Of a stretch of 64,000 bases of DNA, positions 52,760 to 58,749 are shown one piece after another. Source of the stretch: Candidatus Nitrospira nitrosa (lineage in GTDB: Bacteria > Nitrospirota > Nitrospiria > Nitrospirales > Nitrospiraceae); NCBI RefSeq assembly GCF_001458735.1, contig NZ_CZQA01000012.1, positions 1-64,000 of the forward strand, given 5' to 3'. A program made the translations under genes and the position numbers. A model generated the notes under the pieces. The model had not been told where the DNA came from and searched no databases. It was given only the letters and a program-made list of their open reading frames with translations. Position 1 is the first letter of the stretch, and every line of letters starts with the position of its first letter.

Positions 52760-54427
52760 ATGATCCATCTCACGCGATTCAATCACCATGCGATTTCAGC
52801 TGGACTGTGCCTCTCAATGGGGTGGCCAGTCCTGGCCTTCAGCGAGACGCTTCCTCAGCTGCCGGTGATCCCGGATATTAGTTGCGGGACTTCGTCCGGC
52901 AAGACCACAGTGGTTCCTAGTGGAGGCAAACTACAAGCCGCAATCGATGCGGCCTCTCCTGGAGATAGAATCCTGCTTGAAGCCGGTGCGACATTCGTCG
53001 GTCCTATTACCCTAAAAGTGAAACCGGGCACCGGCTGCATCACCATCCGCACCTCCGCTCCAGACTCTGCCCTGCCGCCGACTGGCGAGCGTATCTCTCC
53101 GGCGTATGCCAACGTGATGGCGAAAATTGTGTCACCAGGATTGAATCAGCACGCAATTAAAACCGAATATGGTGCGCATCACTATCGACTGCTGGGTCTC
53201 GAAGTCACAAAGCAGAACAACGACGCATTCGTCTCCCAGCTGATTGAGCTGGGTGACGGGCTAATGACCGAGCTCTCACAAGTCCCACACCACATTGAGC
53301 TGGACAGAATGTACGTCCACGGGTTGCCGACATCGGCGCTCAAGTTTTGCATACTGCTCAACAGCGCTTCCTCCACAGTCAAGAACTCGTACATCGCCGA
53401 TTGCAAGGAACGTGGTTTCGACTCCCAAGCCATTGGAGGGTGGACCGGCCCTGGCCCGTTTGTGATTCTCAACAACTATCTGGAGGGAGCGGGAGAAAAT
53501 GTCATGTTCGGTGGAGCGGACCCACGCATTCCGAATCTCGTTCCATCGGACATCGAGATCCGCAAGAACCTCTTCACGAAGCCGTTACGGTGGAAAATTG
53601 GAGACGCATCCTATGCGGGAATCCCATGGCAAATCAAGAATCTGTTTGAACTGAAGAATGCTCGACGGGTTTTGATTGATGGGAATATCTTCGAATATAG
53701 CTGGGTACACGCTCAGGTTGGCTACGGCATTATGATCACCGTTCGCAACCAGAGTAACCGAGCACCCTGGTCCGTAACTGAGGACATCACCTTCACAAAC
53801 AATATTGTGAAGCATACGGCTAATGGCTTTGCCCTCTCTGGCCTTGACAGCAACTATGCCAGTCAACCCACGAAGCGCGTGTTGATTAAAAATAATCTCT
53901 TCCTGGATATCGGCAATCCACAATGGGGTGGCGGCGGTCGGTTGTTTCAGATTTCCAACGGTCCCTCGGATGTCACGATCGAACACAATACCGGATTTCA
54001 GACAGGCCAAATACTGTACGCGGCGGGGAGTATACCGGGTCTAAACTTTATCTTCCGCGACAACATCGCGCCTCACAACGCCTACGGAGTGTTCGGTGAC
54101 GGAGCAGGCGTCGGTCTAGCCACGCTGAACAAGTACTTCCCAGAGTTCAAGTTCAGCACGAATGTCCTGATCTCGAATCCATTTCCCAAGAATTATCCGT
54201 CGGACAATTTCAACTCGGCGGGAGTTACTGCCGTCGGATTTACAAACGTTGCGACCGGCAACTACAGCCTCAACCCGACCAGCCCTTATTCCCAAAAAGG
54301 TACCGATAATACCGACATCGGCATTAATTGGTCACAACTGCAAGCGGCACTCCGTGTAGAGACAGGCAACATCTCATCTCACTCCGATAGCCATTTAGCC
54401 GCCCCAGCTCTAACCATCGGTCCCTAG
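52760..54427 (+). CDS. secreted right-handed parallel beta-helix protein
   Basis: 555 residues with a signal peptide (GLCLSMGWPVLAFS). The body follows the Pec-lyase/NosD-type beta-helix rhythm: LQAAIDAASPGDRILLEAGATFVGPI, ITIRTSAPDS, HIELDRMYVHG, FVILNNYLEG, RVLIDGNIFEYS, DVTIEHNTGFQ. Such folds bind or cleave acidic polysaccharides; catalytic residues cannot be assigned by eye. It lacks a PEP-CTERM tail. Its perfect sigma-54 promoter places it with the PEP-CTERM genes under probable PrsR control. A paralogue lies convergently at 54562-56301. Confidence 0.85.
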   Translation: MIHLTRFNHHAISAGLCLSMGWPVLAFSETLPQLPVIPDISCGTSSGKTTVVPSGGKLQAAIDAASPGDRILLEAGATFVGPITLKVKPGTGCITIRTSAPDSALPPTGERISPAYANVMAKIVSPGLNQHAIKTEYGAHHYRLLGLEVTKQNNDAFVSQLIELGDGLMTELSQVPHHIELDRMYVHGLPTSALKFCILLNSASSTVKNSYIADCKERGFDSQAIGGWTGPGPFVILNNYLEGAGENVMFGGADPRIPNLVPSDIEIRKNLFTKPLRWKIGDASYAGIPWQIKNLFELKNARRVLIDGNIFEYSWVHAQVGYGIMITVRNQSNRAPWSVTEDITFTNNIVKHTANGFALSGLDSNYASQPTKRVLIKNNLFLDIGNPQWGGGGRLFQISNGPSDVTIEHNTGFQTGQILYAAGSIPGLNFIFRDNIAPHNAYGVFGDGAGVGLATLNKYFPEFKFSTNVLISNPFPKNYPSDNFNSAGVTAVGFTNVATGNYSLNPTSPYSQKGTDNTDIGINWSQLQAALRVETGNISSHSDSHLAAPALTIGP

Positions 54428-54561: not shown

Positions 54562-56301
54562 CTACGGCCACAAGCCATGAGCCGCGACATATTCAACGTA
54601 GTCGACACCAAGATCCTTCCCGTCTGATCCCGCAAGCCTAAATGGGCTGGCACTTGTTAGCCGATAAATCCCCGATGCGTAATTTTCATATCCGAGGGCT
54701 GACTCACTCGCAGGGAATGCGTTCTCTGCACTCCACCCAGGAAGAATTCCCGTCGTACAGCCGGCGGGAGTTGGCCATGGGCCAGCGATCGCATTATGGG
54801 TCCATAGAAATCCTGGAGCATATGTGGCGAGTGCGGTAGTGGAACAACCTCCGACGGATCCAAACAACGGATACTTTCGAGCAGGGAGAATATTATCCTG
54901 AAATACAAGCCTGGCTGAGGTGGATGGCGAGCCGCCCTGCAGCTCTAATCCTTTTCCATCAAGGTTGGCCGCATTGAACTTTGCAACCGTATTGTGAGTG
55001 ATCGTGACATCGCTAGGGCCATTGCCAACGGCAAAAACAATACCGCCCCCTGAATACCCTCCAAGCCCTTCCAAGATGTTATTCCGAATTGTGAACCGGC
55101 TTCCTGAACGAGTTGCATACGTATAGGGCCCACCAGGATCACGGCCGGAAATAGCAACACCGTTTGAAGCAGCTTTCACCTTATTATTCCGAATCGTGAC
55201 GTCTTGGACGATCGTCCATGGAGCACAACCCGGGGAACCAGCTGGACCACACTTTGCACCGACTCCCGAACCTTGCCTCGGAGTGAGCATGAACGCAAAA
55301 CCCGCCTGCGCATCAGGCCACACACCTTCAAACGTATTGCCCTCGATCAACACCCGTTGAGCATGTTTGAGCTCAAGCAGATTCTTGATGCTCAAGAGTG
55401 CAAATTCTGCATTCTTCCAACGGAGCGGCTTGGCAATCGTATTCTTGACAATCGTGATATCGGACGGTGTGAGATTCGGCACAAGCGGATCTGCCCCTCC
55501 GATAAGAATGTTGATCGAAGATCCTTCGATGTAATTGTCTTCGATCCGTAATGGGCCTGCAGCTCCCCAACTCGCTATGGCGTTTGCCTCAGAGTAGTTG
55601 TGCTTGATATCCGAGATCCATGAGTCAATGACCGCCTGATGTCGCCCCTGCAGGATCACGCCAAACCGAACATCTTGCCCGGCAAGTGATGGGCCATGAA
55701 CATACACGCGATCAAAAACAATATGGTGGGGCTGGTCGTCCACAGTTGTTTCAAATCGCCCGCAATGAATAAGGGCGCCGGAAGAATGGCCAGTAGCACT
55801 GTTACCTGGATTGCGGAACTCCAAGCCGATAAGGCGATAGTTGTGTGCATCCGGCTCACAGGTCATCCCATACGTTCCAGTTCGTTCAAGCTTCGGGAGT
55901 TTTGGCGCATCACTGGCAGTCAGACGTTCGCCTGGCGGAGCGAACTGACTATCCGGTGTACTGGTTCGAATAACGATCCAGCCAGACCCCGCCTTATTGC
56001 GTAGAATAAAGCCCTTATCATCTGGAGGTGACTGATAGATTTCACCGGCTTTCAACTGTATGGTCGTACCTGGTAGCGCCGCGTCAATGGCCATCTGTAG
56101 TTGCGAATTCTTATAGGTACAGCCGGAGCTACAGACCGTGATGAGAGCCGGTGCGGCGGGCATCGTCACATCAACAGTTGACTGGGGGAGCACTGCGACT
56201 GCCGCAAGGGATTCATTGGTGGGCAATCTTGTAGCGATACAAGCGACGATCAACGAAGCGGCGACCAGATTGATGAATCGAATCTTCCTCCCGATAATCA
56301 T
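54562..56301 (-). CDS. secreted right-handed parallel beta-helix protein, paralogue
   Basis: 579 residues from the ATG at 56301, eight bases after AGGAG. A signal or anchor segment (INLVAASLIVACIA) precedes beta-helix coils. Shared blocks with the gene at 52760-54427 include IGGADPLVPNLTPSDI, KPLRWKN and GNGPSDVTITHNT, so the two are paralogues of about 25-35% apparent identity. Four cysteines near the N-terminus (VCSSGCTY, MTCEPD, HCGRF) may form disulfides. The IS110 element begins just in front of the ribosome-binding site, so the native promoter has been displaced about 1.7 kb away and expression may depend on the element. Confidence 0.83.
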   Translation of the reverse strand: MIIGRKIRFINLVAASLIVACIATRLPTNESLAAVAVLPQSTVDVTMPAAPALITVCSSGCTYKNSQLQMAIDAALPGTTIQLKAGEIYQSPPDDKGFILRNKAGSGWIVIRTSTPDSQFAPPGERLTASDAPKLPKLERTGTYGMTCEPDAHNYRLIGLEFRNPGNSATGHSSGALIHCGRFETTVDDQPHHIVFDRVYVHGPSLAGQDVRFGVILQGRHQAVIDSWISDIKHNYSEANAIASWGAAGPLRIEDNYIEGSSINILIGGADPLVPNLTPSDITIVKNTIAKPLRWKNAEFALLSIKNLLELKHAQRVLIEGNTFEGVWPDAQAGFAFMLTPRQGSGVGAKCGPAGSPGCAPWTIVQDVTIRNNKVKAASNGVAISGRDPGGPYTYATRSGSRFTIRNNILEGLGGYSGGGIVFAVGNGPSDVTITHNTVAKFNAANLDGKGLELQGGSPSTSARLVFQDNILPARKYPLFGSVGGCSTTALATYAPGFLWTHNAIAGPWPTPAGCTTGILPGWSAENAFPASESALGYENYASGIYRLTSASPFRLAGSDGKDLGVDYVEYVAAHGLWP

Positions 56302-56304
56302 CTC

Positions 56305-56314
56305 GAAGGCTCCT
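56305..56314. repeat. 10-bp direct repeat at left side of the IS110 element
   Basis: GAAGGCTCCT occurs here and again at 58038-58047, bracketing the IS110 element. The copy here contains the ribosome-binding site of the adjacent beta-helix gene. It could be a target duplication or shared recombination sequence. Confidence 0.4.
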
Positions 56315-56377
56315 CTCTTGAAGAGTAGAGTCGTTGCTAACGCGACGGGCTCATCCACTTTAACCGAGGAGGTTGCG

Positions 56378-57394
56378 ATGATGTGTTATGCGGGCATTGA
56401 TCTCCATGCCACGAATAGTGTGCTGGTCGTGATTGATGAAGCGGATCGAGTGCTGTATCAGAAACGCCTCCGCAATGACCTGGCCGTGATCTTCACGGCC
56501 TTAACACCGTATCAGACCACGCTGCAGGGCGTGGTCGTTGAGTCCACCTATAATTGGTACTGGTTAGTCGACGGGCTCATGGAAGCAGGGTACCGGGTCC
56601 ACCTCGCTCATGCACCAGCCCTGCCGCAGTATAGTGGGCTCAAGCATGTTGACGATCAACACGATGCGCAGTGGTTAGCCCATTTACTCCGGCTAGGTTT
56701 GCTCCCTACCGGGTACATTTACCCCAAAGCGGAACGGGCCGTGCGGGACTTGTTGCGGAAGCGCAGTCAGTTGGTTCGGCACAAGACCATGGTCGTGCTG
56801 AGCCTACAAAGCCTGCTGACACGACTGACTGGCAATCGGCTCTCCCTCCCTCGGCTTCGACAGCTCACCCCAGAGGGCATTCAGGCACTTGTGCCATTTC
56901 CCGAACATGTGCAATCGGTCAGCAGTTCGTTGGCTGTGCTGCAATGTCTGGAGCACGAGATTCACACGATTGAGGGCACGGTTCGGGAAGCGGGGCGGAC
57001 TCAGCCGGGCTATGTGCTCTTACAGACCGTCCCCGGAATCGGGCCGATCTTGGCGGGCACCATTCTCCTGGAAGCCGGTGACCTGCGGCGGTTTGCGACC
57101 GTGGGACACTTCGCCTCCTACTGTCGCTGTGTCGGCAGCGAACATGTGAGTAACGGCAAACGCAAAGGGGCTGGCAACACGAAGAACGGCAACAAGTATT
57201 TAAGCTGGGCGTTCATCGAGGCGGCGCACTTCGCCATTCGCTATGAGGCCGTGATTCGCACGTATTATCAGCGCAAGCAGGCACGGACGCATCCCCTTGT
57301 GGCGCTGAAGGCCGTGGCCCATAAATTGGCGCGGGCCTGCTATCACATGCTCCGTGCGCAGGTGCCATTCGATCTGTCCCGCGCTTTTGGCTAG
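56378..57394 (+). CDS. IS110-family transposase (DEDD recombinase)
   Basis: 338 residues from the ATG at 56378 after GAGGAGG. The RuvC-like N-terminal domain shows the first Asp in YAGIDLHATN, the Glu in VVVESTYNWYW and the Asp pair in HVDDQHDAQWLA. The C-terminal transposase domain has TVPGIGPILAGTILLEAGDL and the GAGNTKNGNKYLSWAFIEAAHF block with the catalytic-Ser region. IS110 recombinases insert without classical cut-and-paste and are guided by a bridge RNA from a non-coding end of the element. Intact and full length. Confidence 0.93.
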   Translation: MMCYAGIDLHATNSVLVVIDEADRVLYQKRLRNDLAVIFTALTPYQTTLQGVVVESTYNWYWLVDGLMEAGYRVHLAHAPALPQYSGLKHVDDQHDAQWLAHLLRLGLLPTGYIYPKAERAVRDLLRKRSQLVRHKTMVVLSLQSLLTRLTGNRLSLPRLRQLTPEGIQALVPFPEHVQSVSSSLAVLQCLEHEIHTIEGTVREAGRTQPGYVLLQTVPGIGPILAGTILLEAGDLRRFATVGHFASYCRCVGSEHVSNGKRKGAGNTKNGNKYLSWAFIEAAHFAIRYEAVIRTYYQRKQARTHPLVALKAVAHKLARACYHMLRAQVPFDLSRAFG

Positions 57395-58037
57395 GCGCGG
57401 CAGAGCTGGGGGGAGCTGGGAGCTCGCAAAGGGGTTGAGGCCACACCTCGCACTCCCGATTAGCCCCGGTCTTCCCCCTTCAACTCCCTCGCCACTGGCG
57501 TGGGGACTGAGACGCCTCGACCGTGAGCCATGATGGGGTTGGCGCCAGCCCGCTGGTAGCCAGACGTCCTGTGCGTAGGTATGCTGGACACGGCCGGGAA
57601 CCGACGGTTGTCTGGGGCACGAGGTGCCAGGGGCTGGAGTGGATCCCCGACGGGGCTCGCTCCCACGCCTTGATCCTGATGGGTGACTGGTGCGGCTCAA
57701 ATCCGAGCTGACACTGCTGACGACGACAACCGGGATGCGACGGAGTCACGCGACCACCATGGCGAGGGAAGACGTCGTCGGAGACCTCGCCCCGTTTGTA
57801 GGATACGGAGGGCATGATCGGCTGTGCCCTCTTGACCGGAGCCTTCGAGATGGGCGACCCCTTTTGCGATCCTTTTGTGTCGACAGACATGCATACGTTC
57901 CTCCCAGACAATCCATGCAGGGACCAAACCCGCTTGGATTGACCTGAGAGCAAAGCTCATGCCTCACACCCACCGTCAAGTCTTTGTCCGTTGTCCTACT
58001 ATTTCGCACTCATTACTATTAACCTTCGTCACAACCT
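57395..58037 (+). other. non-coding right end of the IS110 element, candidate bridge RNA
   Basis: About 640 bp after the transposase stop carry only overlapping shadow ORFs on both strands. The first 550 bp are GC-rich with many short self-complementary stretches (for example CCCCGACGGGG near 57645). In IS1111-type members the bridge RNA, which pairs with target and donor DNA, is made from this end. No promoter or exact RNA limits can be given. Confidence 0.4.
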
Positions 58038-58167
58038 GAAGGCTCCTGTATGCATGCTGGCTGTATTTACCTACAGGGGACATCGCGACTACCTTACATT
58101 GCATTCCTGATTCTAAATCAACTAAAACACCGATAGTAAAAGCCTGTGCATATTAAGTAATCTGGCA

Positions 58168-58749
58168 ATGCCTTCGATACATACCACGAACATGAAGACC
58201 TCAAACCGACAGGAAACCCTTCTCCGTCTACTCGCTGAAGACATCCGAGCAAAAGCACGTTGGTGCTACGACAGCACCGCCTGGCGATCGATCCTCAAAA
58301 CTCTGCTGACGGACGGAACAGCGGCAATGATGTGGTATCGTCTCATGCAATGGTCTCGGCGATGGCAACTGACCCCGCTTGAACTACTTTTCAACAAACT
58401 GAATGTGATCTGTTGCAATTGCATTATCGGTCGTGGAGCAGAGTTTGGCCCAGGTCTGGTATTCATCCACTCGACCGGGATCGTGATCAATGGTCAGGTA
58501 CGCGGAGGGTCCCATATCTATCTTGAACATCAGGTAACGATAGGCGCGCAACGAAGGGCGAGCCCCATCCTCGGAGATCGTATCTTCATCGGAGCTGGAG
58601 CGAAAATCGTGGGGGCGGTGACCATTGGAAACGATGTCAACATCGGGGCCAATGCCGTAGTACTGAGCGATATCCCCAATGGAGCCACGGCAGTCGGCAT
58701 ACCGGCAAAGGTCGTTCGGATCAGAAGCGTCCCGTCCTCATCTTCCTAA
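58168..58749 (+). CDS. serine acetyltransferase-like hexapeptide transferase
   Basis: 193 residues. A helical N-terminus (about 10-75) is followed by left-handed beta-helix hexapeptides with the CysE-type catalytic region FIHSTGIVINGQVRGG, then VTIGAQRR, GDRIFIGAGAKIVGAVTIGNDVNIGANAVV and AVGIPAKVVR. CysE makes O-acetylserine, but forms this short in glycan loci often acetylate sugars. Its position beside glycosyltransferases favours a polysaccharide role; supplying O-acetylserine to the sulfur operon 37 kb away is possible. Starts at 58168 and 58192 are both in frame. Confidence 0.82.
   Translation: MPSIHTTNMKTSNRQETLLRLLAEDIRAKARWCYDSTAWRSILKTLLTDGTAAMMWYRLMQWSRRWQLTPLELLFNKLNVICCNCIIGRGAEFGPGLVFIHSTGIVINGQVRGGSHIYLEHQVTIGAQRRASPILGDRIFIGAGAKIVGAVTIGNDVNIGANAVVLSDIPNGATAVGIPAKVVRIRSVPSSSS

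What the first reader, a model, noticed from the sequence alone, without database searches (positions are those of the whole stretch)
56305..58047. IS110 element with a long non-coding end inserted at the ribosome-binding site of a matrix gene
The element is bracketed by a 10-bp repeat (56305-56314 and 58038-58047). The left copy contains the AGGAG of the beta-helix gene, so joining the right flank to the left would restore an uninterrupted leader. The 640-bp end after the transposase lacks genes, and its first 550 bp are GC-rich and structured, as expected of a bridge-RNA region. Perfect repair of the ribosome-binding site would leave the gene translatable but under a new promoter.
Basis: partly seen in the sequence, partly recalled or inferred. 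Interest (0 to 1): 0.55.

Follow-up and report, generated by a model that had tools for sequence, protein, structure and literature searches.

The report
RNA-guided IS1111 element in Nitrospira gene
A mobile DNA element that carries its own guide RNA has jumped into the first codons of a beta-helix protein gene in a Nitrospira genome, where the element's own left end now offers a new ribosome-binding site and start codon; comparing relatives shows how its guide RNA matches both the target site and the newly made junction.

Summary
The element is real, but its ends were misplaced. Copies in the same genome and an IS-free relative put it at 56292-57854 (1,563 bp). The 10-bp 'bracket' is no target duplication: its left copy is the element's subterminal inverted repeat, its right copy is old host DNA.

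It is an IS1111-group element: DEDD transposase, 15-bp subterminal repeats, and a 3' RNA region with strong pair covariation. Guides RTG 57428-57435 and LTG 57451-57458 match the flanks; across 34 elements guides follow their own flanks (0 of 20,000 shuffles for each half). The preferred target, AAAGACTCCCGACCCCTTT, is a dispersed Nitrospira repeat.

Here the element cut the beta-helix gene near codon 13.

Most novel: in the second RNA loop, two bases after the core match the target (48 of 50 elements; about 7 changes on a tree). They resemble IS621 'handshake guides' but sit on the opposite guides, so I predict that IS1111 exchanges the opposite strand first.

The parts
56292..57854 (+). Whole IS1111-group element, 1,563 bp (the ends can slide within the shared CGA: 56292-56294 / 57855-57857)
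   Evidence: 7 of 7 copies with both flanks have 1,563 bp between the same ends; gapless empty site in L140
56299..56313 (+). Left subterminal inverted repeat CATCTCGAAGGCTCC
   Evidence: 15 of 15 complementary to 57838-57852; same repeat in close relatives
57838..57852 (+). Right subterminal inverted repeat GGAGCCTTCGAGATG
56292..56293 (+). Core dinucleotide CG at the left junction (assignment inferred)
   Evidence: CG is shared by both junctions; inferred
57855..57856 (+). Core dinucleotide CG at the right junction (assignment inferred)
   Evidence: as for the left junction
56378..57394 (+). DEDD (IS110-family) transposase, 338 aa
   Evidence: Pfam PF01548 and PF02371; NCBIfam NF033542 'IS110 family RNA-guided transposase' over its cut-off; PDB relative IS621 8wt6; D8, E55, D93, D96 invariant in 15 of 15 relatives aligned
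57407..57477 (+). RNA domain 1: target-binding loop (closing stem 57407-57424 / 57462-57477)
   Evidence: RNAalifold and pair counts on 15 sequences: helix 1 has 8 of 14 pairs with two-sided changes
57428..57435 (+). Right target guide RTG AAAGGGGT, antisense to the right target (ACCCCTTT)
   Evidence: 221 of 272 matches over 34 elements, 0 of 20,000 shuffles
57451..57458 (+). Left target guide LTG CACTCC plus core CG, same sense as the left target (CTCCCG)
   Evidence: 176 of 238 matches over 34 elements, 0 of 20,000 shuffles
57459..57460 (+). Putative handshake guide AT of the target loop, equal to the first LE bases after the core
   Evidence: follows LE class (GATNATC or GAAAATC) in 34 of 34 elements, but with only a few lineage changes, so weak
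57511..57741 (+). RNA domain 2: multi-branched, putative donor-binding domain
57606..57612 (+). Candidate right donor guide GGTTGTC, antisense to LE GATAATC (two G-T wobbles)
   Evidence: by inspection; also paired inside the consensus fold; inconclusive
57678..57685 (+). Left donor guide GATGGG plus core TG, same sense as the right end GATGGG-CG
57686..57687 (+). Handshake guide AC of the donor loop, equal to target bases 57857-57858
   Evidence: 48 of 50 elements match at both bases, 0 of 100,000 shuffles
57832..57837 (+). TTGACC: -35 half of the promoter predicted at the circle junction; -10 half GATAAT at 56293-56298; 18-bp spacer
   Evidence: spacer 17 or 18 in 31 of 35 elements, 15 in 4
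56299..56314 (-). Outward SD plus start codon AGGAG-N8-ATG supplied by the element's left end
   Evidence: sequence; in-frame fusion MIIG-RKIRF
54562..56301 (-). Beta-helix-like protein gene as now read from the element's ATG (579 aa)
   Evidence: 90% identical ortholog in L140
57855..57894 (-). Severed native 5' end of that gene: native ATG 57892-57894 and the first codons; native SD GGGAGG at 57900-57905

Best explanation
This is an active-looking IS1111-group insertion sequence. Its transposase (shown by homology) works as a complex with an RNA made from the 3' non-coding end (RNA structure shown by covariation, transcript inferred). [quoted passage not shown] this is shown by guide-flank covariation. 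A second RNA domain holds a sense guide equal to the element's right end, GATGGG-TG, followed by two bases that equal the target's first two bases beyond the core. I read these as a handshake guide, which pairs with the incoming target strand after strand exchange (inferred by analogy with IS621). Joining the two ends in a circle makes a TTGACC-18-GATAAT promoter (sequence shown, activity inferred). The Nitrospira element prefers a dispersed repeat, AAAGACTCCCGACCCCTTT. The beta-helix gene happened to hold the core of that target, CTCCCGACCCCTTT, near codon 13, so the element entered it there. The gene lost its native start but kept an open frame, because the left end carries an outward AGGAG-N8-ATG in frame.
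For: Ends and copies. Empty site without a gap. Family. Guides follow flanks over 34 of 35 distinct elements (one dropped for lack of a right flank). RNA structure on 15 sequences: 94.9% of cells paired, 26 of 73 pairs with two-sided change, 0 of 500 shuffles reach either. Target repeat at up to 1 mismatch in 59 of 79 genus genomes, reversed control 0 of 79. Handshake bases 48 of 50; target origin of these bases shown by an empty site in a Caballeronia plasmid (295 of 303, no gap) and by uninterrupted repeats. In-frame start.
Against: No transcript or transposition data. The window's RNA alone does not fold better than shuffles (z -1.04, 13 of 100 as good). Within the close clade alone the RTG test is weak (765 of 20,000 shuffles as good). 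Copy L019 sits at a site with 5 of 14 mismatches to the guide core, so the rule is loose. The right donor guide is not supported by covariation. The handshake evidence rests on about 7 lineage changes, and the independent-pairs sign test had too few pairs (3) to decide.
Confidence: 0.88

Rival explanations
1. SeekRNA only: a processed RNA of 70-100 nt around loop 1 does all the guiding, as reported for ISEc11; domain 2 is not a donor-binding loop and is conserved for other reasons, such as processing or transposase binding.
For: Siddiquee 2024 (PMC11187229, sections read) states that the 70-100 nt RNA was sufficient for transposition of ISEc11; loop 1 here (57407-57477) has that size.
Against: Domain 2 has its own compensatory pairs, carries a copy of the right end, and its two bases after the core follow the target in 48 of 50 elements.
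Confidence: 0.25
2. The two covarying bases of domain 2 pair with the 3' end of the RTG inside the RNA (GAC with GTC), not with target DNA; they follow the target only because the RTG does.
For: The same bases are complementary to the RTG end, and in L068 the RNA follows the RTG rather than the actual flank.
Against: The consensus fold does not form that pairing; IS621 has a tested handshake segment 3' of the core of the 3' guide (PMC11208158, passages read).
Confidence: 0.25
3. The insertion simply inactivates the beta-helix gene; the in-frame ATG is a one-in-three accident with no expression.
For: Only 1 of 45 left ends gives an outward frame of 100 aa or more; no outward promoter stands out.
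Against: SD spacing, frame and a signal-peptide-like start are all preserved, and the frame downstream is uninterrupted; a recent insertion would show that anyway.
Confidence: 0.5
4. One reading: element 56315-58037 flanked by a 10-bp target duplication at the gene's ribosome-binding site.
For: The repeat exists.
Against: Other copies, the empty site, and the native right copy in L140.
Confidence: 0.01

Closest known systems
IS1111-group elements with seekRNA (ISEc11, ISPa11, ISKpn4; Siddiquee 2024, PMC11187229)
   Same: Downstream non-coding region, subterminal inverted repeats, top-strand complement (RTG) before bottom-strand match (LTG), no target duplication, junction promoter; ISPa11 also targets a dispersed repeat (REP)
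   Different: Different target; the conserved RNA here spans about 335 nt in two domains, whereas the reported RNAs are 70-100 nt with a 145-170 nt long form
IS621 and its bridge RNA (IS110 group; Durrant 2024 PMC11208160, Hiraizumi 2024 PMC11208158)
   Same: DEDD recombinase, target and donor loops, core dinucleotide inside the guides, two-base handshake guides 3' of the core
   Different: RNA at the other end of the element; guide order reversed; handshake bases sit on LTG/LDG here and beside RTG/RDG in IS621
RAYT / REP repeats (Y1_Tnp, PF01797)
   Same: The target repeat flanks some RAYT-like genes (9 of 78 sites within 1.5 kb, about 0.3% expected)
   Different: Most target sites are solitary; a REP-type hairpin was not tested

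Membership tests
IS1111 group | DEDD transposase of about 330-350 aa related over its length | tested here: met
   338 aa; PF01548 and PF02371, NF033542; D8, E55, D93, D96 invariant in 15 rows; naming these as the DEDD residues is by position and recall
IS1111 group | Subterminal inverted repeats with short asymmetric extensions | tested here: met
   15-bp perfect repeat; outside it 6-7 bp left and 2-3 bp right, depending on how the shared CGA is assigned
IS1111 group | Long non-coding region downstream of tnp | tested here: met
   57395-57854, 460 nt
IS1111 group | No target duplication | tested here: met
   gapless empty site
IS1111 group | RNA with RTG before LTG matching the target | tested here: met
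IS1111 group | Active circle-junction promoter | tested here: inconclusive
   TTGACC-18-GATAAT by sequence; no activity measured
Bridge RNA system | Donor-binding loop with guides to both element ends | tested here: inconclusive
   right-end guide GATGGGTG clear; left-end guide only a candidate
Bridge RNA system | Transcribed RNA bound by the recombinase | not testable with these tools
   no expression data
Handshake guides | Bases beside the core match the non-cognate DNA | tested here: met
   donor loop 48 of 50; target loop follows LE in 34 of 34 but with few lineage changes. That they act in strand exchange was not tested
   right copy pre-exists in L140

The most novel reading that the evidence does not exclude
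IS1111-group RNAs are true two-loop bridge RNAs with handshake guides, but on LTG and LDG instead of beside RTG and RDG. The reaction would be the mirror image of IS621: the bottom strand (relative to the element) is exchanged first, each loop ending up paired with the new junction it creates. This would reconcile the reversed guide order reported for seekRNAs with the bridge RNA mechanism.
Probability: 0.5. Interest if true: 0.65.

Novelty: new member of a known kind. Interest (0 to 1): 0.45.

Why it matters
It places the ends, guides and target of a multicopy RNA-guided element in Nitrospira and corrects a tempting misreading (an element's own SD-ATG taken for a gene's). The wider value is a sequence-level test of how IS1111 elements exchange strands. 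The two bases after the core of the second loop follow the target through four dinucleotide types, which makes the open question of whether IS1111 uses a donor loop and handshake pairing directly testable. If right, programming an IS1111 recombinase would need these two bases changed together with the target guides.

Tried and rejected
Insertion at the gene's own RBS: rejected; the RBS is the element's. Rfam: no hit in 56000-58400 and only two tRNAs in the window. Single-sequence folding as evidence for structure: not significant. A general habit of making gene fusions: rejected, 1 of 45 left ends. Right donor guide by covariation: inconclusive. An RNAalifold run on loop 1 of all 35 elements together found almost no structure, I think because the two large clades do not align well there; the covariation claim rests on 15 sequences of the close clade (A1). 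An element-derived origin of the two handshake bases: rejected for L199 and L198 by empty sites, and the bases match the element's own left end in 0 of 50. Counts of core mismatches were off by one position; the corrected ones are. A script pattern for the target-loop handshake picked false sites in a few rows, so I use the aligned rows for that. A search for papers on outward start codons of IS110 elements with six terms found none, which is too narrow to conclude from.

Rows dropped: 35 distinct RNAs became 34 (L085, no right flank). In one search, 104 records became 59 distinct; L085 lacked a right flank; 8 had no motif read (L058, L079, L102, L116, L129, L181, L201, L205); 50 were scored; 2 mismatched (L068, L119). 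Two more (L061, L132) were left out of the tree for short reading frames.

Full report
WHAT IS THERE. The window belongs to contig C12 of a 4.42 Mb genome. Same-genus genomes carry loci that match named Nitrospira records, so I call the host Nitrospira; this rests on those names. The genome holds 12 transposase copies, 10 identical in protein and 2 at 99%. The DNA search lists 12 near-complete element copies plus one left-end fragment at a contig edge. Over the first 1,535 bp, 8 of the 10 copies compared in the element's orientation (the window's own included) show no difference and the other two show 2 and 3 (L016 and L017 were compared on the wrong strand there and are not counted).

THE ENDS. 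The copies share CGATAATCATCTCGAAGGCTCC on the left in 13 of 13 left ends, and GGAGCCTTCGAGATGGG on the right in 11 of 12 right ends; L024 diverges just before its contig end. Seven copies have both flanks, and all seven are 1,563 bp long. Joining window DNA up to 56291 with DNA from 57855 gives an 808-bp sequence that aligns to a relative (L140, genome G031, no transposase match) over 807 bp with 743 identities and no gap. So the element is 56292-57854, with CGA at both junctions.

WHAT IT IS. The 338-aa protein matches DEDD_Tnp_IS110 and Transposase_20, the NCBIfam model for IS110 RNA-guided transposases over its cut-off, and IS621 among solved structures. It has a 15-bp subterminal inverted repeat, and its long non-coding region lies downstream of the gene. 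These are IS1111-group features according to Siddiquee et al. 2024 (PMC11187229; outline, the first two parts of the text and four further sections read) and Durrant et al. 2024 (PMC11208160; passages read).

THE RNA. Aligning the non-coding region of 15 relatives (A1) gives a consensus of 73 pairs, 26 of them with two-sided changes. 94.9% of cells pair, against 85.2% in shuffles and 34.7 to 48.2% when the structure is slid. Domain 1 is a long stem around an internal loop; domain 2 is multi-branched. The window sequence folded alone is not remarkable.

TARGET GUIDES. I read an RTG (8 nt) and an LTG (7 nt) from aligned positions of 35 distinct RNAs, one dropped. Own flanks match in 176 of 238 LTG positions (shuffled mean 104.3) and 221 of 272 RTG positions (shuffled mean 168.6); no shuffle of 20,000 reached either. 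Sliding the guide by one position drops LTG matches from 176 to at most 70 and RTG matches from 221 to at most 164. Shuffles ignore relatedness; the LTG test also holds inside the close clade (0 of 20,000), while the RTG test there is weak (765 of 20,000), because those targets nearly all read CCCC.

THE TARGET. AAAGACTCCCGACCCCTTT with at most one mismatch occurs in 59 of 79 genus genomes; the reversed control occurs in none. In 12 genomes checked, 9 of 78 sites lie within 1.5 kb of a Y1_Tnp gene, about 0.3% expected; one pair flanks such a gene in L156. In the window's genome only one free perfect and two one-mismatch copies of the core CTCCCGACCCCTTT remain. Of the 7 two-flank copies, 2 occupy perfect cores, 2 one-mismatch, 2 two-mismatch and 1 (L019) a five-mismatch core. 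L019 lies in the C-terminal part of a sigma-54 response regulator.

THE GENE. In the joined sequence the beta-helix gene reads MHVCRHKRIAKGVGRKIRFINL..., against MHACRRKEIAKWVGRKIRFINL... in L140, with GGGAGG upstream in both. The element separates the first codons from the rest. Reading out of its left end gives AGGAG-N8-ATG and MIIGRKIRFINL..., in frame. Of 45 left ends examined, this is the only one with an outward frame of 100 aa or more; the next longest is 95. Whether the protein is made is unknown.

THE SECOND LOOP. Domain 2 holds GATGGGTG-XY. GATGGG repeats the element's right end. XY equals the two target bases that follow the right-junction core: AC, TC, TT or TG. I noticed this in a first table; I then fetched further elements and scored all by one rule. 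Set tabulated before: 31 of 32. Further set: 17 of 18. Together 48 of 50, shuffled mean 23.3, 0 of 100,000. The further set includes some loci fetched before the rule was made but not tabulated then. On a transposase tree of 48 of these, the RNA bases need 7 changes and the target bases 9; the pairwise sign test had only 3 usable pairs and cannot decide. XY is target DNA: for L199 the IS-free site in a Caballeronia plasmid reads ATT-GTCGACGATCTG without a gap (295 of 303), and for L198 uninterrupted AAAGTTGTGTCTATCG repeats exist. Hiraizumi et al. 2024 (PMC11208158; passages read) call such bases handshake guides in IS621, where they extend the RTG and RDG. Here they extend LTG and LDG. In both cases they lie 3' of the core in the 3' guide of the loop, so IS1111 looks like IS621 seen from the other strand; from that I infer that the other strand is exchanged first. 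In the held library only PMC11208158 holds both 'IS1111' and 'handshake'; the IS1111 passage of it shown to me is a reference title. Papers outside the library may already describe this.

VERDICT. An ordinary class of element, corrected in its ends, with a well-supported guide-target reading, one unusual gene capture, and a mechanistic lead on IS1111 strand exchange.

Noticed in passing
L058 around the second-loop guide (columns 335-370): A ~32-nt palindrome-rich insertion splits the otherwise conserved GATGGGTGAC guide, perhaps a dead or altered copy.
   Followed up: no
L131, right end: The right end, including the TTGAC and inverted repeat, is present twice in tandem about 64 bp apart, as if a second insertion left only its right end.
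   Followed up: no
window 56270-56298: Host TTGATG 17 bp before the element's GATAAT makes a chance promoter-like site toward the transposase (1.1 such sites expected by chance in the region).
   Followed up: partly
window 52760-54427 and 54562-56301: Two related beta-helix-like genes (about 42% identical) face each other; neither matches NCBIfam and the second has no Pfam match. Neighbours are acetyltransferase and glycosyltransferase genes.
   Followed up: partly
79 Nitrospira genomes: AAAGACTCCCGACCCCTTT is a widespread repeat, often in inverted pairs a few hundred bp apart; its nature is not settled.
   Followed up: partly
L019: Another copy of the element truncates the C-terminus of a sigma-54 response regulator.
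   Followed up: partly
L151, beside the target motif at 1501: The target repeat lies next to what looks like the right end of a further IS1111-like element.
   Followed up: no
window 56378-57394: The transposase also matches the TIGR-Tas endonuclease model below its cut-off.
   Followed up: no
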